Below are positions 15,131-25,129 of a DNA stretch of 32,444 nt, piece after piece. The number at the start of each line of letters is the position of its first letter. The first letter of the stretch is position 1. The notes below the pieces were generated by a model. It saw nothing but the letters and a program-made list of their open reading frames with translations, was not told the origin of the DNA and did not search any database. Made by a program: the position numbers and the translations under genes. The stretch lies in NCBI RefSeq assembly GCF_003935715.1, contig NZ_RHPP01000036.1, positions 1 through 32,444 on the forward strand, written 5' to 3'. Origin of the DNA: Stenotrophomonas sp. 278. GTDB taxonomy: Bacteria; Pseudomonadota; Gammaproteobacteria; Xanthomonadales; Xanthomonadaceae.

Positions 15131-16111
15131 CTAGGTAGCCGCTTGTTCCTTCAGTTGCGCAACGCCCGCTTCCAGTGTCACCACCGGACGGTAGCCCAGT
15201 TCACGACGCGCGCGGCTGTCGTCCAGCGTGACCTCCACGGCGGACGAGGCAAACTCCTGCCGGGTCATCGGCGCACGCAGCGGCAGGCGTAGTGCGCGGA
15301 ACAGATCATCAAGCGCGACGATCGTGCGCAGCACACCGCGCGGCACCCTTTTCTGCGGCACCTCCACACCGTAGGCCTGCAGCTGCGCGCTGATCAGCCG
15401 GCGGAACGGCACCGGTGCACCATCGGTGATGTGATAGATGCGCCCAGCTGCCCCGCTCTGCAGCGCGCAGTGCACCGCCTCGCACACGTTGTCCACGTGG
15501 GTGGCGGAGGTGAGGTAGTCGCCGCCATCGATCCAGGCGAAGCGCCCGCTGCGCACAGCCTCAAGCAGATACGGCATGGCGGTGGTGTTGTCGCGGCCCC
15601 ACACGAAGCGCGGGCGCAGGATCTTCACTGCAAACTGCGGCGAGTTCAAGGACAGCGCCACGCGCTCGGCCTCGGCTTTGCTGGCACCGTAGTTGCCCGG
15701 TGCACGCGCGGGATACGGATGATCCTCCTTGGCATTGCACAGGGGTGTGCCGTCGGTGAGCGCCGATTCGCTGCTGATCACGATCGCCACCGGCACTCCG
15801 GCGTCACGCGCGGCGGCAAGCACATTGCGTGTGCCCTCCACATTCGTCTGCCACTGGCTGGGTGAGGCATTGCGGTGATCGGTATCAGCGGCGGCGTGCA
15901 CAACAGTGGCGCAGTCGATCATGAGCCGGGCGATGCCCGGGTCCAGCAGATCACCGCGCACCGGCTGCGCACCCAGTGCCTGTACCGTGATAGCGGCCGC
16001 ATCGCTGCGCACCAGGGCACGTACCACATGTCCATCGCGGCACAGGCGGCGGATCAGATTGCGGCCCACGTAGCCGCTTCCTCCGGTAAGGAAGAGCGTG
16101 GAAGAACTCAT
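15131..16111 (-). CDS. NAD-dependent epimerase/dehydratase-family protein
   Basis: A 326-residue extended SDR. The cofactor loop TGGSGYVGRNL is at residues 9-19, VHAAADTDH follows the fourth strand, and the catalytic pair is YGASK (Tyr141, Lys145). The middle motif LRPRFVWGRDN and the form of the substrate part resemble the 3-beta-hydroxysteroid dehydrogenase-like group rather than sugar epimerases. The exact reaction is unknown. The frame is open to 16210, but ATG 16111 opens the Rossmann fold. It lies 23 bp after the TetR gene in one operon, so TetR very probably controls it. Confidence 0.83.
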   Translation of the reverse strand: MSSSTLFLTGGSGYVGRNLIRRLCRDGHVVRALVRSDAAAITVQALGAQPVRGDLLDPGIARLMIDCATVVHAAADTDHRNASPSQWQTNVEGTRNVLAAARDAGVPVAIVISSESALTDGTPLCNAKEDHPYPARAPGNYGASKAEAERVALSLNSPQFAVKILRPRFVWGRDNTTAMPYLLEAVRSGRFAWIDGGDYLTSATHVDNVCEAVHCALQSGAAGRIYHITDGAPVPFRRLISAQLQAYGVEVPQKRVPRGVLRTIVALDDLFRALRLPLRAPMTRQEFASSAVEVTLDDSRARRELGYRPVVTLEAGVAQLKEQAAT

Positions 16112-16134
16112 CGGGGGTACCTCGGTGGGAGAAA

Positions 16135-16689
16135 CTAGTTCGCGGGTGGTGGTGCGTCGACCAGTGCGCTGATGTCCTGCAGCAGTTGATCCCGCTGTTC
16201 GGCGGGCCACTGCACGTAGTCCAGCGACTCCAGCAGTTTCAGTCCTTCAAGCGCCAGGTAAGCCAGCAATGCGCTCCGCGGCTGCTGCGCGCTGGACTGG
16301 ATCTCAGCAAGGATCGCGGTCTGGTTGCGCTGGATGGGAGCACGCAACTGCGGGTCCTGCGCCATCGCCGCGCACAGCGCCAGAGCGACGGGCTGGAAGG
16401 CTTCCGGGAAGGGTTGAGCGGCGGCGGCAATGCGCCCGCGCAGCACGGCATCCCGAGTGAACCCCTGCGCAGCCTCCCGGTTGAAGACGTTGTCGCGCTC
16501 CACCGCGCGCTCCACCACCGCCTGGATCAGGCCGGCCTTGGAACCAAAGTCATAGACCACCGAAGCCTTGCTGACCCCGGCCTCGGCCGCCACTGCGTCC
16601 AGCGTCAGCCGCGCGGCTCCTACCTGCGCCACCACGCGCTCGGCGGCGTCCAGAACCTGTTGCGGATCAATGCTTTTGGGGCGGGCCAT
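16135..16689 (-). CDS. TetR-family transcriptional regulator
   Basis: A 184-residue repressor. The helix-turn-helix is LTLDAVAAEAGVSKASVVYDF (about residues 28-48), with the first helix IDPQQVLDAAERVVAQVGAA before it. The C-terminal ligand domain is helical (RSALLAYLALEGLKLLESL). It is the first gene of an operon with the epimerase-like enzyme. A well-formed promoter and a dyad lie directly upstream, which fits autorepression relieved by a ligand, perhaps a substrate of the enzyme. Confidence 0.9.
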   Translation of the reverse strand: MARPKSIDPQQVLDAAERVVAQVGAARLTLDAVAAEAGVSKASVVYDFGSKAGLIQAVVERAVERDNVFNREAAQGFTRDAVLRGRIAAAAQPFPEAFQPVALALCAAMAQDPQLRAPIQRNQTAILAEIQSSAQQPRSALLAYLALEGLKLLESLDYVQWPAEQRDQLLQDISALVDAPPPAN

Positions 16690-16704
16690 GGGCGGCCTCC
16701 ATTT

Positions 16705-16720
16705 TTAACCATCCGGTTGA
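16705..16720. promoter_or_regulatory. TetR operator candidate
   Basis: TTAACCATCCGGTTGA is a dyad with arms TTAACC and GGTTGA (one mismatch). It directly follows the -10 box of the TetR-operon promoter on the - strand, which is the classic place for a repressor to block transcription start. Confidence 0.55.
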
Positions 16721-16747
16721 TTATAAATTCAATCAGCGAGATGTAAA
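16720..16747 (-). promoter_or_regulatory. promoter of the TetR-epimerase operon
   Basis: Read on the - strand, TTTACA (16742-16747) and a consensus TATAAT (16720-16725) are separated by 16 bp. The -10 box ends about 30 bp before the TetR start codon. The region is AT-rich compared with its surroundings. Confidence 0.75.
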
Positions 16748-16760
16748 GCAGGCGGCCTGC
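16745..16760 (-). terminator. short terminator-like hairpin after the vWA gene
   Basis: Read leftward, GCAGG-CCG-CCTGC (16748-16760) forms a small GC hairpin beginning 3 bases after the vWA stop. Only TTT follows, and that TTT opens the -35 box of the next promoter. It may be a weak end signal for the five-gene operon. Confidence 0.4.
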
Positions 16761-16763
16761 GCA

Positions 16764-17951
16764 TCACCTTGTTGTCAGCAGGCCTTGTCCGCCGGCCCAC
16801 TGGTTGATGTCGTCGCGACGGATGGCGGCCGCCATCAGGCCCGGGAACGCGTCCGGCGTACAGGCGAACGACGGCACGCCCAGCGCCGCCAGGCGCGCGG
16901 CCAGCGCGTGGTCGTATGAGGGGGTGCCTTCGTCGCTCAGCGCCAGCAGCACGATGAACTGCACGCCAGCTTCCAGCAGTTCTTTCGCGCGCGCCAGCAG
17001 GCGATCTTCCAGGCCGCCTTCGTACAGGTCGGAGATGAGCACCAGAATGGCGTTGTGCGGCTCGCGGATGAGGCTCTGGCAGTAGGTCACGGCACGATGG
17101 ATGTCGGTGCCGCCGCCCAGCTGCACGCCGAACAGCAGATCCACCGGGTCATCCAGCTGCTCGCTCATGTCCACCACCTCGGTGTCGAACACCACCAGCC
17201 GGGTCGACACCGCCGGCAGCGAGGCCATCACCGCACCGAAGATGCTGGAGTACACCACCGAGGCGGCCATCGAGCCGCTCTGGTCAATGCACAGCAGTAC
17301 CTCGCGCTGGGGTTTACGTGCCTTGCGGCCATAACCCACCAGTTCCTGTGGCACCACTGTACGCAGCTCGGGCTGCCAATGCCGCAGGTTGCTGCGAATG
17401 GTGCGATGCCAGTCGATCTCGGCCAGGCGCGGGCGGCGGTTGCGGCGGGCGCGGTCCAGCGCGCCACTCACCGCCGAGCGCATCGGCTCCTCCAGCTGGC
17501 GCAGCAGGTCGTCCACCACCTGGCGCACGACCATGCGCGCGGTCTCCTTGGTCTCACTGGGAATGACCTGGCTCAGGCCAATCAGGCTGGCCACCAGATG
17601 CACATCGGGCTGCACCTGCTCCAGCATTTCCTTTTCCAGCAGCATCTGGGTCAGGTCCAGACGCTGCAGGGCGTCGCGCTGCATTACCTGGACCACGGAA
17701 GAAGGGAAGTAACGGCGGATGTCGCCCAGCCAGCGCGCCACGTTCGGCGAGGACGCGCCGCGGCCACCGCGCCGTCCCAGCCCGCCCGCACCATCGGGCT
17801 CATACAGCGCCGCCAGCGCCTGATCGATGCCCTGCAGCGGCTTGGGCAGCGCACCACAGCTGGCCTCCGCCTCCTGGCCAAGGATCATGCGCCAGCGCTG
17901 TTCACGGGTGGTGGGCGGCAGCACGCCCTGCTCTTCGGTGATATCGGTCAT
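16764..17951 (-). CDS. vWA-domain protein of the MoxR-associated operon
   Basis: A 395-residue soluble protein. The C-terminal half is a von Willebrand A domain with an intact metal site: DQSGSM (Asp223, Ser225, Ser227), GGGTDIHRA and LISDLYEGG. The N-terminal half is helical with a Gly/Arg linker (GAGGLGRRGGRG). vWA partners of MoxR ATPases usually act as adaptors that bring a target to the ATPase; ViaA of RavA-ViaA is the best-known example. The ATG overlaps the DUF5682-like stop (ATGA), and it is the last of five genes. Partners and targets are not readable here. Confidence 0.88.
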   Translation of the reverse strand: MTDITEEQGVLPPTTREQRWRMILGQEAEASCGALPKPLQGIDQALAALYEPDGAGGLGRRGGRGASSPNVARWLGDIRRYFPSSVVQVMQRDALQRLDLTQMLLEKEMLEQVQPDVHLVASLIGLSQVIPSETKETARMVVRQVVDDLLRQLEEPMRSAVSGALDRARRNRRPRLAEIDWHRTIRSNLRHWQPELRTVVPQELVGYGRKARKPQREVLLCIDQSGSMAASVVYSSIFGAVMASLPAVSTRLVVFDTEVVDMSEQLDDPVDLLFGVQLGGGTDIHRAVTYCQSLIREPHNAILVLISDLYEGGLEDRLLARAKELLEAGVQFIVLLALSDEGTPSYDHALAARLAALGVPSFACTPDAFPGLMAAAIRRDDINQWAGGQGLLTTR

Positions 17952-20266
17952 GCGGGCAGTCCCAGCAGTTCGCGCAGCATCGGCAGCGCGCGCTCGGCGC
18001 GGGCCACGTTCCAGTCGGGGGCCGGCGCGGCCACGGACGCCTGCATCGGAGCCCGTTTCACCCGGGTCCCCAGGTCACGCCGGTCAGCCGCTTCGAACGC
18101 GGCAAACGTACGTCGCACCAGCGGCAGCGCGCGCACAAGTTGCTCTTCATCCAGCGCGACCACCCAGGCATCGATCATCTGCCACACCGCGTCGTCGTGC
18201 AGCAGCACGGTGGCGTTGCGGTTGAGGAAACCGTCCAGCCACTGCGCCGCCTGCAGCGGTTCAGCACCCGGTGACAACTGCTGCTGCAACTGGATGTGGA
18301 CCATCTCGGTCGACAGTACCCGGGCATCAAACAACAGCCGCAGCGACACGCCGCGCAGCAAGGCGCTGCAGGAAGGCGACAGGGCAACGCGCTGCAGCGC
18401 CTTCTGCCAGTTTTCGCTGCCGGCGGCGTCGTTGCGCAGACCGATGGCGCGGTCGGCCTCCAGTACCACGTTGCGGGCCTGCTCGGCGTGTGCCTCGTCG
18501 AGACTGGACAAGGCCAGGCTCAGACCAATGACGGCGCGCTCAAGCATGCTGTCGAACACATGTGCCACCTGTACGCCTTCGGTCTGGCGCACGTTGCCGT
18601 AGCGATGCATGTTCGCCAAGGGCGGCAGCGCGCCCAGCAGCGCCAGCGGATCGGCCTGGGTGGCCGCACGCGCCTCCAGCTCAGCGGCGATGCTGCGCAC
18701 CGCCTGCGGCAGGTCCGCCAGCAGCACGTGGTTCACCAGCTCGGACAAGGCCGGAAGATCTCTGGCCGTGCGCGCCTCGCTGACCGCCTTGCTGGACGCT
18801 GCATCCACCAGGGTCTGCCCGTGCCGGCTGGCCTCCACCAGGTCGACCAGGAACTGCGGCTGCCAGGCCAGTCGCCACATCTCGTGGAAGGTGCCGCGCG
18901 CCGAGTGGCCGGTGCGCGACAGCTGCCCCCATTCGATGCCCAGCAACTGCAGGCGGTGCAGCAGATGACTTCGCGCCAGGTCGTTGTCCTTGCGCAGGTC
19001 CAGATTGAGCGTCTTTTCCAGCGCTTCGGGTTTGAGCCGCAGCCGCTTCTGCTGGGCTTCCAGGTCACGCTGCAGCGGCACCACTGGAACGCTCTCGGGC
19101 ACCTGGCCCAGCGCATCGCCCACCATCAGGCGTTCGCGGATCAGCTGCATGGGCGCATCGTCGCCATTGCAGATGACCGCACGGCTGGCTTCGGCAATAT
19201 CGTCCAGGCCGGGGGCCGGATGCTCGCGCAGTGCGGCCAGGGTGTCGGCCAGGCGCGTGGCTTCGATCAGGTGCGCCGGTGAACAATCCAGCCCGTGCTC
19301 GCGTAGCAGACGCCCCACCCGGGCGTACCAGCCCACGGCGCGCTGCGCATGCTGGCCGGCGTTGCGCCACAGGTGGTCGTACCAGCCGGGTGCGTCCACA
19401 CCGGCCCCGTAACCACTGGCGCTGCTGAGATGACGGTAGGTCCACGGCACCCAGGTGCTCTGGGTGCCGCGCTTGGGCATGCCCTTCAGCAGCCGGTTGT
19501 CGGCGGCGGCGCTGTTGGCACGGAGCGCCTCTGGTTGCAGTGCCGGCACGTGCCAGGCACCACACACCACCGCCACGTGCCCGAATTCCTTGCTGGCTGC
19601 GCGCAGTGCCGCACGCATGTGCGCCTCGCGGACCGCTTCGTGTTCACCACGTCGCCCGCTCAGCGGCGGCGTGTTTTCACGCACAGCGGTCATGGCCTCG
19701 GCAATGGCCTGGAACAGGCCCTCGCCTTCGCCGCGCTCTTCCACCATGTTGTTCCACCAGGTCTCGCCGTCGGCGTGGCCGGCGGCACGCGCCAGCCAAT
19801 CCAGCGGGTCGGCGGGGCGCTCTTCCAGGGCCGGCGCTTCCTTGTCAGCAACCTCGACATCGGGCAACGCCGCGCTTTCGTCGATCGGCAGCGCCGTGTC
19901 GCCCTCGGGCTCTGCCTGGTGGGCGGCACGGGCCTGTGCCTGCCACTCCAGGGTGAGCGGCGGAGGTACGTCCATGAAGCGCACCGGCACATTGCGCTGC
20001 AGCGCCCAGCACATCGCCTGCCATTCCGGCGAGTACAACGCGTAGGGGTGGAACACCGCCAGCTGCGGGTCGTCCACGCTGTAGGACAGCAGTGCCACCG
20101 GCGGCTGCATGCCGGCTTCCAGCACGTGCGCGAGCAGCGCCTCGGTACCGGCCGGGCCTTCAATCAGCAGGCACTGCGGCGGCTGCGCTTCCAGCGCGGC
20201 CAGCAGGCTGCGTGCACAGCCCGGGCCATGATGGCGTATGCCGAACAGGGAAATGCCGTCACTCAT
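17948..20266 (-). CDS. DUF5682-like protein of the MoxR/vWA operon
   Basis: A 772-residue cytoplasmic protein starting ISLFGIRHHGPGCARSLLAAL, LLIEGPAGTEALL. This opening, with its HHGPG motif and following LIEGP strand, is what I know of the DUF5682 family, whose function is undescribed. Later there is AVVCGAWHVPAL, a histidine motif of the sort seen in TraB/EreA-like hydrolase folds. That leads me to suspect a metal-dependent hydrolase with HH and H as ligands. The second half is helical and repeat-like. It is encoded 14 bp after the MoxR gene and overlaps the vWA gene. It has no signal peptide. Confidence 0.8.
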   Translation of the reverse strand: MSDGISLFGIRHHGPGCARSLLAALEAQPPQCLLIEGPAGTEALLAHVLEAGMQPPVALLSYSVDDPQLAVFHPYALYSPEWQAMCWALQRNVPVRFMDVPPPLTLEWQAQARAAHQAEPEGDTALPIDESAALPDVEVADKEAPALEERPADPLDWLARAAGHADGETWWNNMVEERGEGEGLFQAIAEAMTAVRENTPPLSGRRGEHEAVREAHMRAALRAASKEFGHVAVVCGAWHVPALQPEALRANSAAADNRLLKGMPKRGTQSTWVPWTYRHLSSASGYGAGVDAPGWYDHLWRNAGQHAQRAVGWYARVGRLLREHGLDCSPAHLIEATRLADTLAALREHPAPGLDDIAEASRAVICNGDDAPMQLIRERLMVGDALGQVPESVPVVPLQRDLEAQQKRLRLKPEALEKTLNLDLRKDNDLARSHLLHRLQLLGIEWGQLSRTGHSARGTFHEMWRLAWQPQFLVDLVEASRHGQTLVDAASSKAVSEARTARDLPALSELVNHVLLADLPQAVRSIAAELEARAATQADPLALLGALPPLANMHRYGNVRQTEGVQVAHVFDSMLERAVIGLSLALSSLDEAHAEQARNVVLEADRAIGLRNDAAGSENWQKALQRVALSPSCSALLRGVSLRLLFDARVLSTEMVHIQLQQQLSPGAEPLQAAQWLDGFLNRNATVLLHDDAVWQMIDAWVVALDEEQLVRALPLVRRTFAAFEAADRRDLGTRVKRAPMQASVAAPAPDWNVARAERALPMLRELLGLPA

Positions 20267-20280
20267 CGACGCAGGTCCGC

Positions 20281-21363
20281 TCAGACGTGTTCGCGGAAGG
20301 CGCGGTACAGGTCTTTCCAGTCATCGCGTTCCTTGACCACGGTTTCCAGATACTCCTTCCACACCAGCGCGTCCTGCACCGGGTCTTTGACGATGGCACC
20401 GATCATGCCGGCGGCCATGTCGGCCGGGCGCAGCACGCCATCGCCGAAGTGACCGGCCAGCGCCATGCCATTGTTGATCACCGAGATCGCTTCGGCGGTG
20501 GACAGCGTGGCGGTGGGACTCTTGAGCTTGGCCTTGCCGTCCTCGGTCACGCCATTGCGCAGTTCGCGGAAAATGCGCACCACGCGCGCCACTTCCTGCA
20601 GCGCCGGCGGCTCGGCCGGCAGGTCCAGCGCCACGCCCATTTCACCGACACGCTTGAGCACGATCGCCACTTCGTCCTCTTCGCTGTTCGGCACCGGCAG
20701 GATCACGGTGTTGAAGCGGCGCTTGAGTGCGCTGGACAGTTCGTTCACGCCCTTGTCGCGGTTGTTGGCGGTGGCAATCACGCTGAAGCCGCGAACCGCC
20801 TGCACTTCGCTGCCGAGTTCCGGCACCGGCAGGGTCTTCTCCGAAAGCACCGTGATCAGCGCATCCTGCACGTCGGCCGGAATACGGGTGAGTTCTTCAA
20901 TGCGCGCGATCTTGCCCAGGCGCATCGCGTTCATCAGCGGGCTGGGCACCAGTGCCTTTTCGCTGGGGCCATTGGCCAGCAGCTGCGCATAGTTCCAGCC
21001 GTAGCGGATCTGTTCTTCACTGGTGCCCGCGGTACCCTGCACGAGCAGGGTGGAGTCGCCGCTGATCGCGGCGGTCATGTGCTCGGACACCCACGACTTG
21101 GCGGTGCCCGGCACCCCGAACAGCAGCAGCGCGCGGTCGGTGGCGATGGTGGCCACGGCCACTTCCATCAGGCGGCGCTCGCCGATGTACTTTGGGCTGA
21201 CCACGAAGCCGTTTTCCAGCGTGCCCCCGACCAGATAGGTCACCACCGCCCATGGCGACATGGTCCAGTTGGCCGGCCGCTGGCGGTTGTCCTGGCGGCG
21301 CAGTTCCTCCAGTTCCTCGGCGTATTGGTGTTCGGCGTGCTGGCGCAGGACGGCAGTGCTCAT
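20281..21363 (-). CDS. MoxR-family AAA+ ATPase
   Basis: A 360-residue AAA+ ATPase. Walker A is GVPGTAKS (83-90), sensor 1 is IATANNRDKG (Asn200/201), and the arginine finger region is SALKRRF (Arg215/216). The usual Walker B Asp-Glu is replaced by Glu-Glu in KIARIEELTR (156-157), which I take as a feature of this subfamily rather than damage. MoxR ATPases form hexamers that remodel proteins together with vWA partners, and one is encoded two genes on. ATG 21363 follows a GGAG site; upstream frame extension lacks homology. It is the third gene of the operon. Confidence 0.9.
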   Translation of the reverse strand: MSTAVLRQHAEHQYAEELEELRRQDNRQRPANWTMSPWAVVTYLVGGTLENGFVVSPKYIGERRLMEVAVATIATDRALLLFGVPGTAKSWVSEHMTAAISGDSTLLVQGTAGTSEEQIRYGWNYAQLLANGPSEKALVPSPLMNAMRLGKIARIEELTRIPADVQDALITVLSEKTLPVPELGSEVQAVRGFSVIATANNRDKGVNELSSALKRRFNTVILPVPNSEEDEVAIVLKRVGEMGVALDLPAEPPALQEVARVVRIFRELRNGVTEDGKAKLKSPTATLSTAEAISVINNGMALAGHFGDGVLRPADMAAGMIGAIVKDPVQDALVWKEYLETVVKERDDWKDLYRAFREHV

Positions 21364-21391
21364 GAGGGCTCCAGTGATAAGGCGGTCAGGA

Positions 21392-22918
21392 TCAAAGGGG
21401 GGAATGCAGGGTCTGGCGCAGGGCCAGCAGCTGATGCGCCTGCTGCACGCAATCGAGCATGGCGTCGGTGGCGTTGGCGGCGGCGTCCGCCACACGCACC
21501 TCGGCCAGCACGGCCGGGTGCAGGACGGCAAGCAGCTCCAGCAGTACGTCGCGCAGGTAGTAGTCGTAGCGGAGGGCTTCGTCGCCCAGCTGCGCGCCGA
21601 TGCCGGCGGCCAGACGCCGCGAGTAGGCTTCACTGAGCGTCTGCCCGGGCGCGGTGCTGCCCAGCACGTCGCTCAGCAGGCGATGTTCGTGCAGTTCGCG
21701 TGCAGTGGCCGGCCAATGCCGTTCGCGCTGGTCAGGCGGCAGCAGCGCCATCAGCTCGCCCAGGCGGGGGCGCAGCCTGTCGAGGCCGATCAGCGCCTCC
21801 ACCCATTGCGGGGTGCTGGCATCGACACGTTCCAGCCATGCGCGCAGCAGCGCGTCGTACCAGTCGGTGCCGCGCGCCCAGTCCAGCAGCTCCGCCGGCG
21901 GCTGCGCCAGGGTATGTTCCCACCAGGCGAGCGGCAGCTGGCGGGCCAGCTGATACAGCCACCAGGCACGCTCGCCCAGTGATTCACCGTTCGGTCGTTT
22001 GGGGTCGATGGCCACGTCCGCCCACTCCGGCTGCGCCGCATCCGGCGCGGCCAGTACCCACGCCTTGCGTCCGAGCAGACCGCCGCGCTGCTCCTGCAGC
22101 AGCGTCTGCATCTGCGCCTGCAGGTACTGTGCGTGCGCGGTGCCCGGCAACTGCGCCAGCATCGGCCCCACCCGCTGGCGGACTTCGCGGCTGCGGTCTT
22201 TGAGCAGCGGCTGCAGCAGGTCGGCATCGGCCTCCCCGAGCTGCGGCTGCAACGCGGTGACCAGGTCGACGCGCTCGCGCGCGGAAAGCGTCTTCAGGCT
22301 TTCCTGCAGGCGCACACGCGCCTGACCGGCATCCTGGGTGCGCAGCTGCTGGAACGCCTGCAGGCGCACATCGGCGCTGCCTTCCTGCCAGGCCCGCTCC
22401 AGCTCGGCGGGGTCGTTACCCTCGGCAGCGGCGTCGACGGCATAGGCCCAATCCGTATTGCGCGCGGCAAGCCAGCGCCCACGCTCACCCAGCACGCCGC
22501 GCAGGTGCGGGCGCAACACGGTCATTCGTGCACCAGCTTCCAGCGCGTGCGGCAGCGCTGCTACTGGCAGGTGTCGTTCACGCGTGGCGAGTTGCAGGCA
22601 GGCCTCATGCCGGACGCGCTTCACCCACGGCGACGGCTGGCCTCCGGTGAACAGTGATTTCAGCAGTGGGCTCCAGCGGTGGTCCGCCGGAAGGACTGCG
22701 GCATCCGGTGCTGCGGGTGCCGGCGCGGCTACTGGAGCGGCCAGTCGCATCGCGGCGCGCTGGCAGGCGGCGAGCACGCCGACCTGCTGGCTGTAGCCCA
22801 GTGCGGCATCTTCCTGTGTGGCCAGGACGGCCAGCACCTCGCCGACGGGTCCTTCCATCGAAATCGCCTGCGGGCGGTCGATACCCAACAGGGCCGGCTT
22901 CAACCAGGCGTCGTTCAT
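21392..22918 (-). CDS. DUF5691-like helical-repeat protein
   Basis: A 508-residue soluble protein (MNDAWLKPALLGIDR) that I match to DUF5691, a family known only from this kind of operon. The middle holds HEAT-like helical repeats (DVRLQAFQQLRTQDAGQARV, ESLKTLSARERVDLVTAL, LLKDRSREVRQRVGPMLAQL), suggesting a scaffold that binds other proteins. An Ala/Pro-rich linker lies near residues 60-72. The ATG at 22918 overlaps the SWIM gene stop (ATGA); the longer open frame to 23158 only overlaps that gene. 28 bp separate it from the MoxR gene. Confidence 0.8.
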   Translation of the reverse strand: MNDAWLKPALLGIDRPQAISMEGPVGEVLAVLATQEDAALGYSQQVGVLAACQRAAMRLAAPVAAPAPAAPDAAVLPADHRWSPLLKSLFTGGQPSPWVKRVRHEACLQLATRERHLPVAALPHALEAGARMTVLRPHLRGVLGERGRWLAARNTDWAYAVDAAAEGNDPAELERAWQEGSADVRLQAFQQLRTQDAGQARVRLQESLKTLSARERVDLVTALQPQLGEADADLLQPLLKDRSREVRQRVGPMLAQLPGTAHAQYLQAQMQTLLQEQRGGLLGRKAWVLAAPDAAQPEWADVAIDPKRPNGESLGERAWWLYQLARQLPLAWWEHTLAQPPAELLDWARGTDWYDALLRAWLERVDASTPQWVEALIGLDRLRPRLGELMALLPPDQRERHWPATARELHEHRLLSDVLGSTAPGQTLSEAYSRRLAAGIGAQLGDEALRYDYYLRDVLLELLAVLHPAVLAEVRVADAAANATDAMLDCVQQAHQLLALRQTLHSPL

Positions 22919-24249
22919 GCACTGCTCCTTTCCCACTGCTCGCCCTGTGCGTTCCATGCCGACAACGGGTGCAGCACCTGTCCGTCCCACTCGCCCATCA
23001 GGCACAGCGGGTGGCCGCCGGCAAAGGCCATCAGCGACCAGCCCGGCATCGGAGCGAGCTGCAATGCCAGCGTGCCCTCGCCGTGCTGCAGCCAGCAGCG
23101 CTGCCCGTCGTGGGCAACGGTGACGGCGCTCAGGCGCATGGGCACCTGCGGCAACCACGGGTTGTCAGCGCAGGCCTGCGCGGCGACGTCAAAGGTGTCG
23201 TCAGCGGGTACCGCAGACGCGGTACCGCCTTGCACCTCACTGGCCACGGCGCGCAGCGGCACTGTGCCGGCATGGAAATGCACGGTGCCGGAATGGCTGT
23301 AGCCGGTGCGCCACTGCTGGTCCCAGCCGCGGCCGCCGTGACTGTAATCCTGCAGCAGCGCGGCGCGCCCGCTTGCCACACCATGCAGCCACACGCGGCG
23401 CTCGGTGAGGTTGCCGGGGTGTTCAATCAGCTGCTGGCCCTGCACGAACCAGGCATCCTGCAAGGCCTCGCCTTCGCGCAGCACCGTCTCACGGTCAACC
23501 GGCCAGCCCAGCGCGGCGCGCAGGTCGGCCTGGCGTGCCGCGCTGAAACTCTCCACTCGCGGCACCGCCTGGGTCAGCAGCTGCAGCAGGCCCAGGCGCT
23601 CGCCCAGGCGTGCGAGCGAAGGGAGATCGCGCCCGCCGCCGGACACAGCGTGGTCCAGCAGCGCGGCGAGTCCGGGGGCCTGCGCATCGACCATGCGCGC
23701 GCTCATGCGCTGCGCGTCCTGCTCGAATCCATTGCCCAGATTGGCCAGCCCCTGGCGGAACTGGTCGGCGATCCATCGCTGCAACTCACCCGCGCCCGCT
23801 TCCATCTTCGACCAGCGCGAGGCTTCGCGCTTGGCGGCGGCGGCGGCCTGCACCTGCGGATCCGGCGGCGGCGCGTTGGCGGCGGCTTCAGCGGCCGCTT
23901 CCTTGCGTGCGGCACGGTCGCGACGACCCTGCATCCACTCATCCACCCAGGCCGGACGCGTGCCCGGCACACAGCGCGGATTGCCCGCCGCATATAGAAG
24001 CAGCAGGGCCAGACCATGCTTGCAGGGAAATTTCCGGCTGGGGCAGGAGCAGCGGCTGACCAGCCCGGCCAGGTCGACCTGGGTCTGGTAGGGCTTGGAA
24101 CCACTGCCCTGGCATTCGCCCCACAAGGCTTCGGCATCGGCCCCGAGCAGGCCCCATTTGCCATCGGTGGCCAGCCCCGCGCCGGCTTTGCTTGACGCAG
24201 CATCAGGTGCAAGCGCGAGCACCTGCTCGCGCGTGAGTCGCACTTCCAT
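22915..24249 (-). CDS. SWIM zinc-finger protein, first gene of the MoxR/vWA operon
   Basis: A 444-residue protein with a SWIM finger near the N-terminus: CSCPSRKFPCKH, ligands Cys67, Cys69, Cys76 and His78. SWIM fingers bind zinc and are used for DNA or protein contact. After it comes a charged Ala-rich helix (RRDRAARKEAAAEAAANA), then a helical region. Last is a beta-rich half (VWLHGVASGRAALLQDYSHG, LQLAPMPGWSLMAFAGGHPL) that I do not recognise. GTG 24261 and ATG 24249 are both possible starts; I prefer the ATG. It opens the operon, with a palindrome overlapping its leader. Confidence 0.85.
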   Translation of the reverse strand: MEVRLTREQVLALAPDAASSKAGAGLATDGKWGLLGADAEALWGECQGSGSKPYQTQVDLAGLVSRCSCPSRKFPCKHGLALLLLYAAGNPRCVPGTRPAWVDEWMQGRRDRAARKEAAAEAAANAPPPDPQVQAAAAAKREASRWSKMEAGAGELQRWIADQFRQGLANLGNGFEQDAQRMSARMVDAQAPGLAALLDHAVSGGGRDLPSLARLGERLGLLQLLTQAVPRVESFSAARQADLRAALGWPVDRETVLREGEALQDAWFVQGQQLIEHPGNLTERRVWLHGVASGRAALLQDYSHGGRGWDQQWRTGYSHSGTVHFHAGTVPLRAVASEVQGGTASAVPADDTFDVAAQACADNPWLPQVPMRLSAVTVAHDGQRCWLQHGEGTLALQLAPMPGWSLMAFAGGHPLCLMGEWDGQVLHPLSAWNAQGEQWERSSA

Positions 24250-24260
24250 ATCCGTACTCA

Positions 24261-24279
24261 CATCAGATTGGGTCTGATG
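24261..24279. promoter_or_regulatory. palindrome in the leader of the MoxR/vWA operon
   Basis: CATCAGATTGGGTCTGATG has perfect 7-base arms around a 5-base centre. It ends 11 bases before the SWIM ATG, so it is either an operator or an RNA hairpin near the ribosome site. A weak -10-like TATCAT (24277-24282, - strand) overlaps it, without a good -35. Confidence 0.5.
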
Positions 24280-24347
24280 ATAGCCGAGGTTGGGTGACAG
24301 ATTGTGCGGTCAATCCAACGACACACGGTTCGGATTGACGTGCCGAA

Positions 24348-24370
24348 GCTGCCGGGCAGCGCCCGGCAGC
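24348..24370. terminator. strong hairpin after the OBAP-like gene
   Basis: GCTGCCGGGC and GCCCGGCAGC are perfect 10-base arms around AGC, starting 3 bases after the OBAP-like stop when read leftward. There is no T run, and no GTAG head as in SMAG elements. It may stabilise the 3' end of that message or stop transcription before the MoxR/vWA operon. Confidence 0.5.
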
Positions 24371-24373
24371 ACC

Positions 24374-25129
24374 TCATCGCGCGTGGTGCGTCTGCCCGGT
24401 CGGATCCTGCAACTGCAGCACCCTGCCCTGTTGCCAGGCGTCGGCTTCCGGATCGATGGTCGGGGTGGGGATGTCGGCGCGCTCGGCGCGCTTGGCCGCC
24501 GCGTCCACGTCCAGGCGATGGTTGCGTTGGGCCAGGAGCCCGGGATCCAGCTGCCCGTCCCGGGTGAACCCCATCATCAGCTGCGGTGCGCCGAGCGGCA
24601 GGGTCAAATCCCGGTCGGTGTGCCACGTATGCCAGGTCTTGCCGTAGGTGCCCACCAGCTTGGTCATCAACGCCTTCTCCGCCACATCGGGCAGACCCGG
24701 GGCAATCAGCGCACCCGACTTCACCTCATGCACGTGACTGTGCCAGAGCGCCTTTTCCTGCGGCGGGAGCTTTTCGAACACTGCCGCACTGACGATGTAT
24801 TCCACGCCCATGAGCTTGGCGTCGCTCACGCTCCCGTCGTAGATGACACACTGGATCACGTCGTCGTTCAGCACCGAACAGTAGTGGTGCGCTTCCATCT
24901 GCGCTTCCATCGCGCCGTTGTAGAAGTGGAATCCATCGAGATAGGCGTTCAGTGCCTCGACAGGGGGCCTGTCCTGGATCATCGCCGCACCTGCATCGAG
25001 TGCACGGGTCTTGGCGCTCTCACTTTTCCCCGGGGCTTCAACCGGTGAATCGGTCTGACCGCCGCCACATGCAGATACAGTCGATGCGAGGATCAAAGCG
25101 GCTGCGGCGACGAGGATGGGGCGGGTCAT
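24374..25129 (-). CDS. OBAP/DUF1264-like lipoprotein
   Basis: A 251-residue protein with a lipoprotein signal (LILASTVSAC, lipid Cys near residue 21). The rest resembles the oil-body-associated-protein family (DUF1264): LDGFHFYNGAMEAQMEAHHY, CSVLNDDVIQCVIYDG, AKLMGVEYIVS, LWHSHVHEVKSG and GKTWHTWHTDRD. Its many histidines are conserved in the family, but the function is unknown. GGAG stands 8 bases before the ATG at 25129. The xthA gene ends about 20 bp upstream on the same strand, so the two may share a transcript. A 10-bp-arm hairpin follows the stop. Confidence 0.85.
   Translation of the reverse strand: MTRPILVAAAALILASTVSACGGGQTDSPVEAPGKSESAKTRALDAGAAMIQDRPPVEALNAYLDGFHFYNGAMEAQMEAHHYCSVLNDDVIQCVIYDGSVSDAKLMGVEYIVSAAVFEKLPPQEKALWHSHVHEVKSGALIAPGLPDVAEKALMTKLVGTYGKTWHTWHTDRDLTLPLGAPQLMMGFTRDGQLDPGLLAQRNHRLDVDAAAKRAERADIPTPTIDPEADAWQQGRVLQLQDPTGQTHHAR

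What the first reader, a model, noticed from the sequence alone, without database searches (positions are those of the whole stretch)
16764..24249. Five-gene SWIM / DUF5691 / MoxR ATPase / DUF5682 / vWA operon: an undescribed MoxR-vWA machine
Five genes are packed head to tail with ATGA overlaps at two junctions (22915-22918, 17948-17951) and gaps of 14 and 28 bp at the others, so they are made together. MoxR and vWA proteins are known partners in protein remodelling. Here they come with a SWIM zinc finger, a HEAT-like scaffold and a 772-residue protein with an HHGPG start and an AWHVPAL motif. A plausible model is that the SWIM protein senses a target, the scaffold and vWA protein present it, the ATPase remodels it and the DUF5682-like protein acts as enzyme. 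vWA-MoxR gene sets have been proposed as conflict systems, but the function of this five-gene form is unknown to me.
Basis: partly seen in the sequence, partly recalled or inferred. Interest (0 to 1): 0.78.

Follow-up and report, generated by a model that had tools for sequence, protein, structure and literature searches.

The report
Five-gene ATPase and hydrolase cassette
A tight set of five bacterial genes, related to an unexplained operon of laboratory E. coli, seems to encode an ATP-driven machine built around a probable hydrolase; the set is real and recurs in distant bacteria, but its job in the cell is still unknown.

Summary
SWIM, DUF5691, MoxR-type AAA+, DUF5682 and CoxE-type vWA genes lie head to tail at 24249-16764, minus strand. 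The set is not chance: of 595 genomes searched, 24 have DUF5691 above its cut-off; all 24 carry DUF5682 within 3.4 kb and all five genes. In two relatives only the cassette matches the window, not the flanks.

It is not wholly undescribed. E. coli yehL-yehM-yehP-yehQ is MoxR, DUF5682, vWA, SWIM, and YehL names a MoxR subfamily. The window is a sister branch in which DUF5691 stands in place of the DUF4132 proteins of the yeh branch. Searches found no function in print.

New here: the DUF5682 N-terminal domain looks like a branch of the Tiki/TraB/ChaN hydrolase superfamily, so HHGPG and AWHVPAL are probably active-site motifs. I propose that MoxR-vWA mechanically activates or gates this hydrolase, with SWIM-DUF5691 as targeting module. 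A phage-defence role is not supported by context.

The parts
22915..24249 (-). SWIM zinc-finger protein, 444 aa (possible GTG start at 24261)
   Evidence: Pfam PF04434 28.6 bits; zinc-ligand pattern CxC...CxH: first Cys in 28 of 28, the other three in 27 of 28 with one gap; profile homology to E. coli YehQ outside the finger, P 1.9e-5 over 146 columns
21392..22918 (-). DUF5691 protein, 508 aa, probable helical scaffold
   Evidence: PF18944 297.1 bits; in one ORF with SWIM in L105, L107 and L155; weak PDB matches to alphaRep proteins
20281..21363 (-). MoxR-type AAA+ ATPase, YehL-like, 360 aa
   Evidence: PF07728 129.5 bits; 41% identity to E. coli YehL; Walker A GxPGTxK, E156 E157, N200, R215 R216 in 48 of 48 (numbers one higher)
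17948..20266 (-). DUF5682 protein, 772 aa; N-terminal ~290 aa Tiki/TraB-like putative hydrolase domain
   Evidence: PF18934 814.7 bits; profile match to the TraB/GumN family P 1.5e-5 over 203 columns, 0 of 200 shuffles reach it; H12, H13, E36, R213, E214, H239 in 49 of 49
16764..17951 (-). CoxE-type vWA protein, 395 aa, YehP-like
   Evidence: PF05762 175.4 bits; 36% identity to YehP; MIDAS D223, S225, S227, D308 in 46 of 46, T282 in 42 of 46 (one of 47 rows, L117, left out); in one ORF with DUF5682 at 6 of 49 loci

Best explanation
The five genes encode one machine, the DUF5691 branch of the YehL-type MoxR-vWA systems. SHOWN by sequence: the five genes form one conserved set; ATPase, MIDAS and zinc-finger residues are intact in the window; the DUF5682 N-terminal domain has the residue pattern and profile similarity of the Tiki/TraB/ChaN superfamily. 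INFERRED: MoxR forms a hexameric ring; the vWA protein docks on it as NorD does on NorQ and holds DUF5682 through its MIDAS; ATP-driven movement remodels DUF5682, loading a metal or opening its active site, so that a hydrolase normally kept closed acts on its target. The SWIM finger and the DUF5691 scaffold (DUF4132 proteins in the yeh branch) form a separable module that binds the target or places the machine. The substrate, perhaps a peptide bond, ester or cofactor, is unknown.
For: Linkage: DUF5691 above cut-off in 6 of 299 and 18 of 296 genomes, each time within 3.4 kb of DUF5682. Architecture: 28 of 28 fetched loci with a DUF5691 ORF hold the other four families. Fusions: DUF5682 with vWA in one ORF at 6 of 49 loci; SWIM with DUF5691 at 2 of 28 plus a Hymenobacter plasmid. 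Pairwise identities of the five families correlate, r 0.90-0.97 over 26 loci (two fusion loci left out, no control family run). Enzyme: N-domain against TraB/GumN profile, P 1.5e-5 over 203 collinear columns, 0 of 200 column shuffles as good; six unrelated profiles P 0.14-0.56. In a scan of 22 N-domains against Pfam at E up to 1, ChaN (described there as Tiki superfamily) and TraB_PrgY_gumN are the only other families hit by more than one member (2 of 22 each, best E 0.01 and 0.011). Motor: PDB matches to Midasin (E 1e-15) and NorQ (E 1e-6); the NorQD structures show a MoxR ring moving a vWA partner to insert metal (abstract and passages of PMC13036017).
Against: No structure or complex could be predicted. 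No PDB chain of the Tiki superfamily was found with the DUF5682 profiles: the best are a two-domain di-Zn(II) and porphyrin-binding protein (E 0.0078, outside the N-domain) and pentatricopeptide repeat proteins (E 0.0025). In one search one member hits CBM46 with a better E (0.0054) than the Tiki-type families. The ChaN match is weak (P 0.004) and, on cleaned profiles, short (36 columns). The first Glu of the 2His/2Glu set of a Tiki-family peptidase (passages of PMC6254334) is not conserved: position 10 is V or I in 49 of 49, position 11 is R in 45 and C in 4. That DUF5682 rather than an outside protein is the client of MoxR-vWA rests on linkage and fusions only.
Confidence: 0.5

Rival explanations
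1. A housekeeping maturation system: MoxR-vWA acts on a separate metallo- or respiratory enzyme elsewhere in the cell, and DUF5682 is an accessory that binds or moves a metal or haem (as ChaN is described in Pfam), not the final hydrolase.
For: MoxR-vWA pairs act on nitric oxide reductase (abstract), CO dehydrogenase and Rubisco (abstract openings and titles in the listing; CbbQO in a passage). DUF5682 is weakly similar to ChaN. yehLMPQ matches in 5301 of 5426 E. coli genomes, 5162 over at least 80%, as a housekeeping role would suggest.
Against: No client gene recurs beside the DUF5691-type loci: no Pfam family is in more than 2 of 104 neighbours at E up to 1e-5. DUF5682 is in every architecture seen and is fused to vWA at 6 of 49 loci, but the loci were picked by DUF5682 or DUF5691, so MoxR-vWA pairs without DUF5682 could not be seen.
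Confidence: 0.25
2. An anti-phage or inter-bacterial conflict system in which SWIM-DUF5691 senses an invader, MoxR-vWA sets the threshold and DUF5682 is the effector protease.
For: Patchy distribution: DUF5682 over cut-off in 10 of 81 genomes of the genus, 12 of 299 and 21 of 296 in two phyla. The cassette sits in unrelated flanks in L005 and L006, about 5 kb from a GajB gene in L006; the yeh type lies beside a restriction-modification gene set on an Iodobacter plasmid; DUF5682 is in 36 plasmid records, some of them chromosome-sized. PADLOC mad3 hits two neighbours (best E 1e-31). MoxR-vWA pairs occur in published conflict systems (section 7 and passages of PMC7159879).
Against: Among the five proteins PADLOC gives only two marginal IetA matches of the ATPase, E 0.0067 and 0.0095. 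No PADLOC model hits more than 2 of 104 neighbours, from 24 of 28 loci (25 of 50 families shown, ordered by count), or more than 1 of 72 at the other types. Partner families do not vary. Near-core in E. coli. No relative found by a pattern scan of IMG/VR and 1 of 50,697 phage records.
Confidence: 0.17
3. The five genes merely sit together and do not form a functional unit.
For: None found; complexes were not tested.
Against: Linkage across two phyla, the same order on Deinococcus and Rhizobium plasmids, overlaps, fusions, and one shared block between relatives.
Confidence: 0.02

Closest known systems
E. coli K-12 yehL-yehM-yehP-yehQ operon (YehL subfamily of MoxR ATPases), with yehI, yehH and yehF upstream
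   Same: MoxR (41% identity), DUF5682 (28%), CoxE-type vWA (36%) in the same order, plus a SWIM protein related beyond the finger by profile
   Different: No DUF5691; DUF4132 and WGR proteins instead; SWIM gene at the 3' end and longer (614 against 444 aa); DUF5682 of the lower-scoring class (330.8 against 814.7 bits)
NorQ-NorD, CbbQ-CbbO and CoxD-CoxE MoxR-vWA activases
   Same: MoxR with vWA partner, MIDAS and Walker motifs; phmmer matches to NorQ; vWA of CoxE type
   Different: None of their clients is encoded in the cassette; a DUF5682 protein and a SWIM-DUF5691 module instead
MoxR-vWA ternary conflict systems (Kaur and others 2020, PMC7159879)
   Same: MoxR-vWA core with partner genes in one operon
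   Different: Pfam lists no VMAP, iSTAND, FtsH or beta-propeller domain in the five proteins at E up to 0.01; bpMoxR 19.6 bits against a cut-off of 27. Partner families constant over the loci seen. The main text has no hit for SWIM, yeh, EreA or Tiki
Tiki/TraB/PrgY/GumN and ChaN superfamily
   Same: Collinear profile match that aligns the N-terminal G..H, a Glu, an Arg and the C-terminal GxxH
   Different: About 480 further residues after the domain; part of a MoxR-vWA operon; first catalytic Glu not conserved; Pfam lists it only as DUF5682

Membership tests
YehL-type MoxR-vWA system (yehLMPQ) | YehL-like MoxR, DUF5682 and CoxE-type vWA adjacent in this order | tested here: met
   order as in E. 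coli
YehL-type MoxR-vWA system (yehLMPQ) | SWIM protein in the operon | tested here: met
   PF04434 in both; homology outside the finger P 1.9e-5; pairwise BLASTP alone not significant, E 0.17
YehL-type MoxR-vWA system, yeh branch | DUF4132/YehI-like protein next to the core | tested here: not met
   0 of 28 DUF5691-type loci against 9 of 10 yeh-type loci (L039 has none in the stretch held and its contig ends just after DUF5682). So a sister branch, not the yeh branch itself
MoxR AAA+ family | Walker A, Walker B glutamate, sensor 1, arginine finger | tested here: met
   Conserved in 48 of 48; hits to NorQ and Midasin. Motif names are recalled
vWA partner of MoxR | MIDAS DxSxS-T-D | tested here: met
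   D, S, S and last D in 46 of 46; T in 42 of 46, N in 4 (one of 47 rows left out)
Tiki/TraB/ChaN superfamily (DUF5682 N-domain) | Profile similarity along the domain with His, Glu, Arg and His aligned | tested here: met
   TraB/GumN P 1.5e-5, 203 columns, 0 of 200 shuffles; ChaN P 0.004, about the same as TraB against ChaN (P 0.004)
Tiki/TraB/ChaN superfamily (DUF5682 N-domain) | Full 2His/2Glu set | tested here: not met
   Second Glu and both His present; position 10 is V or I and position 11 is R or C; the set is from PMC6254334 passages. Hence 'probable branch', not 'proven member'
Tiki/TraB/ChaN superfamily (DUF5682 N-domain) | Parallel beta-sheet core fold | not testable with these tools
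   Structure prediction switched off
MoxR-vWA ternary conflict systems | VMAP, iSTAND, FtsH or beta-propeller component (section 7 of PMC7159879) | tested here: not met
   No such domain listed by Pfam at E up to 0.01; it was not checked that Pfam holds a model for each component
Known anti-phage defence systems | Match to a defence model, or enrichment of defence genes nearby | tested here: not met
   activity itself not testable here

The most novel reading that the evidence does not exclude
DUF5682 is a new branch of the Tiki-type hydrolases, and the cassette is an ATP-gated hydrolase machine of a kind not yet described: a MoxR ring and vWA adaptor that open or load a Tiki-fold peptidase or esterase, aimed by interchangeable targeting modules (SWIM-DUF5691, or SWIM with DUF4132/WGR). 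The same machine, in the yeh form, would then sit uncharacterised in nearly every E. coli.
Probability: 0.35. Interest if true: 0.78.

Novelty: new variant of a known kind. Interest (0 to 1): 0.55.

Why it matters
YehL is one of only two MoxR ATPases of E. coli K-12 (passage of PMC3893208) and I found no function for it in print. Showing that its operon has a sister branch in distant bacteria, with one constant core (MoxR, DUF5682, vWA) and exchangeable adaptors, and that the constant non-motor part is probably a Tiki/TraB-type hydrolase, turns an operon of unknown function into a testable hypothesis with named residues. If right, it would add gated hydrolysis to the known tasks of MoxR-vWA pairs.

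Tried and rejected
Defence island: PADLOC on the five proteins, on 104 of 210 neighbour ORFs from 24 of 28 DUF5691-type loci and on 72 of 130 from 17 of the 20 loci of other types (L002, L119, L125 left out) showed no recurrent defence family. Viral origin: IMG/VR 0 relatives from 19 pattern matches, 1 phage record. Close plasmid copies of the window cassette: none. DUF5691 as a divergent DUF4132: no similarity (P 0.65 and 0.75), so replacement, not homology, is all that can be said. DUF5682 in the PDB by sequence: no Tiki relative. vWA in the PDB: no match at E up to 1. Papers: DUF5682 0, DUF5691 0; two papers hold at least two of four yeh names, one opened for its deletion table, the other not opened; one search listed 25 of 693 papers with any yeh name, mostly other meanings of the letters. 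Searches (2 of 2; 25 of 100; 4 of 4; 12 of 12; 15 of 137; 25 of 44) listed related papers but, by title and abstract opening, none on this set. The paper cited for the MoxR subfamilies and two Tiki papers are not held, so a description of the yeh neighbourhood there cannot be excluded.

Script errors: the window row of the MoxR, vWA, SWIM and DUF5691 profiles was empty because of a name clash; the other rows were sound. rebuilt them and gives the numbers used here. One search failed and was redone; one search failed and was redone within 109. Rows dropped: one of 47 vWA rows (L117, whole fused ORF), 2 of 17 ChaN loci (too short when read), two fusion loci (L105, L107) from the identity correlation.
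Full report
What is there. From 5' to 3': SWIM (24249-22915), DUF5691 (22918-21392), MoxR-type AAA+ (21363-20281), DUF5682 (20266-17948), CoxE-type vWA (17951-16764). Two junctions are ATGA overlaps and two are gaps of 28 and 14 bp; each gene starts ATG and ends TGA in frame. Pfam matches are above cut-off for each protein. Upstream lies a DUF1264 gene, downstream a TetR regulator and an NAD-dependent epimerase-like gene. The only sigma-70-like site found in 16600-24450 (1 found, 0.5 expected) lies at 16747-16720, before the TetR gene and not before the cassette. ARAGORN found no tRNA and Rfam no family over its threshold in the window.

Where it occurs. A pattern scan of genome contigs gave five DUF5682 relatives: three Stenotrophomonas (93, 80 and 80% identity in the best segment), one Xanthomonas (80%) and one Kutzneria (40%); that the window itself is Stenotrophomonas is my inference from this. 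In 81 genomes of the window's genus, 10 have DUF5682 over the cut-off and 13 at E up to 0.001; eight of the ten score 724-834 bits like the window and two 345-349 bits like the E. coli branch. In 299 genomes of the phylum DUF5682 is in 12 and DUF5691 over cut-off in 6 (8 at E up to 0.001). In 296 genomes of the phylum of the Kutzneria genome the figures are 21 and 18 (21 at E up to 0.001). All 24 genomes with DUF5691 over cut-off, the window's own among them, have DUF5682 on the same contig with 1.2-3.3 kb between the matched stretches (coordinates). The five DUF5691 matches below the cut-off (two and three) have no DUF5682 in their genomes. The reverse does not hold: 6 of 12 and 3 of 21 genomes with DUF5682 have no DUF5691 match.

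Architectures. I took neighbourhoods and searched them with profiles built from the window proteins and YehQ. Of 49 DUF5682 loci including the window, 28 have a DUF5691 ORF, and all 28 have the other four families too: 18 collinear as in the window, 8 with SWIM and DUF5691 turned the other way (L097-L104), 2 with SWIM and DUF5691 in one ORF (L105, L107). These 28 include all 24 genomes above. One locus (L127) is a contig fragment with DUF5682 and vWA only. Ten are of the E. coli type: eight have MoxR, DUF5682, vWA and a YehQ-like SWIM protein; L039 is cut by a contig end and L041 runs from DUF5682 into DUF4132 ORFs to the end of the stretch, so vWA and SWIM were not seen in these two. Six have DUF5682 and vWA in one ORF after MoxR (L115, L117-L121). 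Four have vWA first (L123-L126). Several loci come from related species or from one genome, so these are counts of loci, not of independent events. Annotated plasmids show the window-type order in Deinococcus and Rhizobium, in Methylosinus with the vWA gene in pieces, and with a SWIM-DUF5691 fusion in Hymenobacter; two others are of the E. coli type. Across 26 window-type loci the pairwise identities of the five families correlate with r 0.90-0.97, which fits shared descent but had no outside control.

One block. BLASTN of the window (E up to 1e-10) against L005 and L006 matches only from about 16775 to 24268 and 24299, that is, the cassette. In L003 and L004 the cassette is again one piece with sharp ends (16766-24320 and 16776-24268), but other parts of the window match elsewhere in these loci. 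Cassette G+C is 0.689 against 0.653 and 0.622 in the flanks. So the five genes travel or persist as one unit in different surroundings.

Relation to E. coli. yehL, yehM, yehP and yehQ of K-12 are MoxR, DUF5682, vWA and SWIM: 41% identity for MoxR, 28% over 591 columns for DUF5682, 36% for vWA. For SWIM against YehQ, BLASTP is not significant, but profiles match outside the finger (P 1.9e-5, 146 columns). YehL is named as one of seven MoxR subfamilies (passage of PMC3893208). DUF4132/YehI-like ORFs lie beside 9 of 10 E. coli-type loci and none of the 28 window-type loci, nor the ten of the other two types; among six plasmid loci both E. coli-type ones have them and the four window-type ones do not. 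So DUF5691 and DUF4132 replace each other; no sequence similarity between them was found. In E. coli the four genes match in 5301 of 5426 genomes, 5162 of them over at least 80% of the length, yet they lie in a stretch deleted from the reduced strain DGF-298 (table passage of PMC10652928), so they are common but dispensable in that strain.

What DUF5682 is. Its N-terminal domain has residues invariant in 49 of 49 homologues: H12, H13, E36, D99, E176, R196, R213, E214, G236, H239. I built profiles for the TraB/GumN and ChaN families from genome matches (30 of 30 and 15 of 17 loci used) and compared them by hhalign. On profiles cleaned of gappy columns, the N-domain matches TraB/GumN with P 1.5e-5 over 203 columns; 200 column shuffles reach at most 21.0 against 44.1, the reversed profile 12.6. 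The alignment puts the RHH stretch on the G..H of TraB, E36 on a Glu, R213 on an Arg and GAWH239 on its G..H. On uncleaned profiles the same comparison gave P 1.2e-4 over 51 columns, and ChaN P 0.0022 over 185 columns; cleaned, ChaN is P 0.0041 over 36 columns, 0 of 200 shuffles as good. TraB against ChaN, accepted relatives (my recollection), score P 0.0017 uncleaned and 0.004 cleaned. Six unrelated profiles score P 0.14-0.56. When 22 N-domains were scanned against 24,736 Pfam models at E up to 1, the only families other than DUF5682 hit by more than one member were ChaN (described there as Tiki superfamily) and TraB_PrgY_gumN, two members each, best E 0.01 and 0.011; nine further families are hit by one member each, CBM46 with E 0.0054. 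Also against the reading: searches of the PDB with DUF5682 profiles gave no Tiki relative, and the first Glu of the 2His/2Glu set of a Tiki-family peptidase (PMC6254334 passages) has no counterpart. I conclude that DUF5682 is probably a branch of that superfamily, with most but not all of the catalytic set.

How it may work. In the NorQ-NorD pair a MoxR hexamer acts on a vWA partner through a finger in its pore and thereby allows metal insertion into the target, which the MIDAS is thought to hold (PMC13036017 abstract and passages; PMC9976466 passages). The MoxR motifs are kept in 48 of 48 homologues, and the full MIDAS in 42 of 46, with N for T in the other 4. The constant core MoxR-DUF5682-vWA, and the DUF5682-vWA fusions, make DUF5682 the most likely client. 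The SWIM-DUF5691 fusions make these two the most likely second module.

Defence or not. Distribution is patchy in the genus and in two phyla, and single loci lie near a GajB gene (L006) or restriction-modification genes (L156). PADLOC on 104 neighbours gave 50 families, of which 25 were shown: mad3, mad2, mad8 and a CARF model hit two members each and the rest, GajB among them, one; whether the mad hits are more than generic domains was not checked. The five proteins give two marginal matches of the ATPase to IetA. Kaur and others describe four MoxR-vWA conflict classes (section 7), and Pfam shows none of their third components in the window. I rate a conflict role at 0.17.

Verdict.

Noticed in passing
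window 20281-21363 (MoxR residues 288-291): Where, from memory, MoxR proteins carry a sensor-2 arginine, this subfamily has S-T-A-E (S, A and E in 48 of 48, T in 46, which numbers them 289-292). No comparison with other MoxR subfamilies was run.
   Followed up: partly
L154 11172-12397 (Methylosinus trichosporium OB3b plasmid): The vWA family matches in three overlapping ORF pieces next to four annotated window-type genes, with transposase genes nearby; probably a decaying copy. Only described.
   Followed up: no
window 15131-16747: A sigma-70-like site (TTTACA, 16, TATAAT; 11 of 12) lies just before the TetR-family gene that overlaps an epimerase-like ORF; in 81 genomes of the genus only one other (G668, 89% identity) has a copy of the latter above 52% identity.
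   Followed up: partly
G196 (L032, L033); G464 (L097, L117, L125); G326 (L102, L118, L124): Single genomes hold two or three of the architectures at separate places, so the branches are not mere substitutes for each other.
   Followed up: no
L152 8762-8998, L155 8368-8979: Plasmid copies from Deinococcus and Hymenobacter carry an extra small hypothetical gene between MoxR and DUF5682.
   Followed up: no
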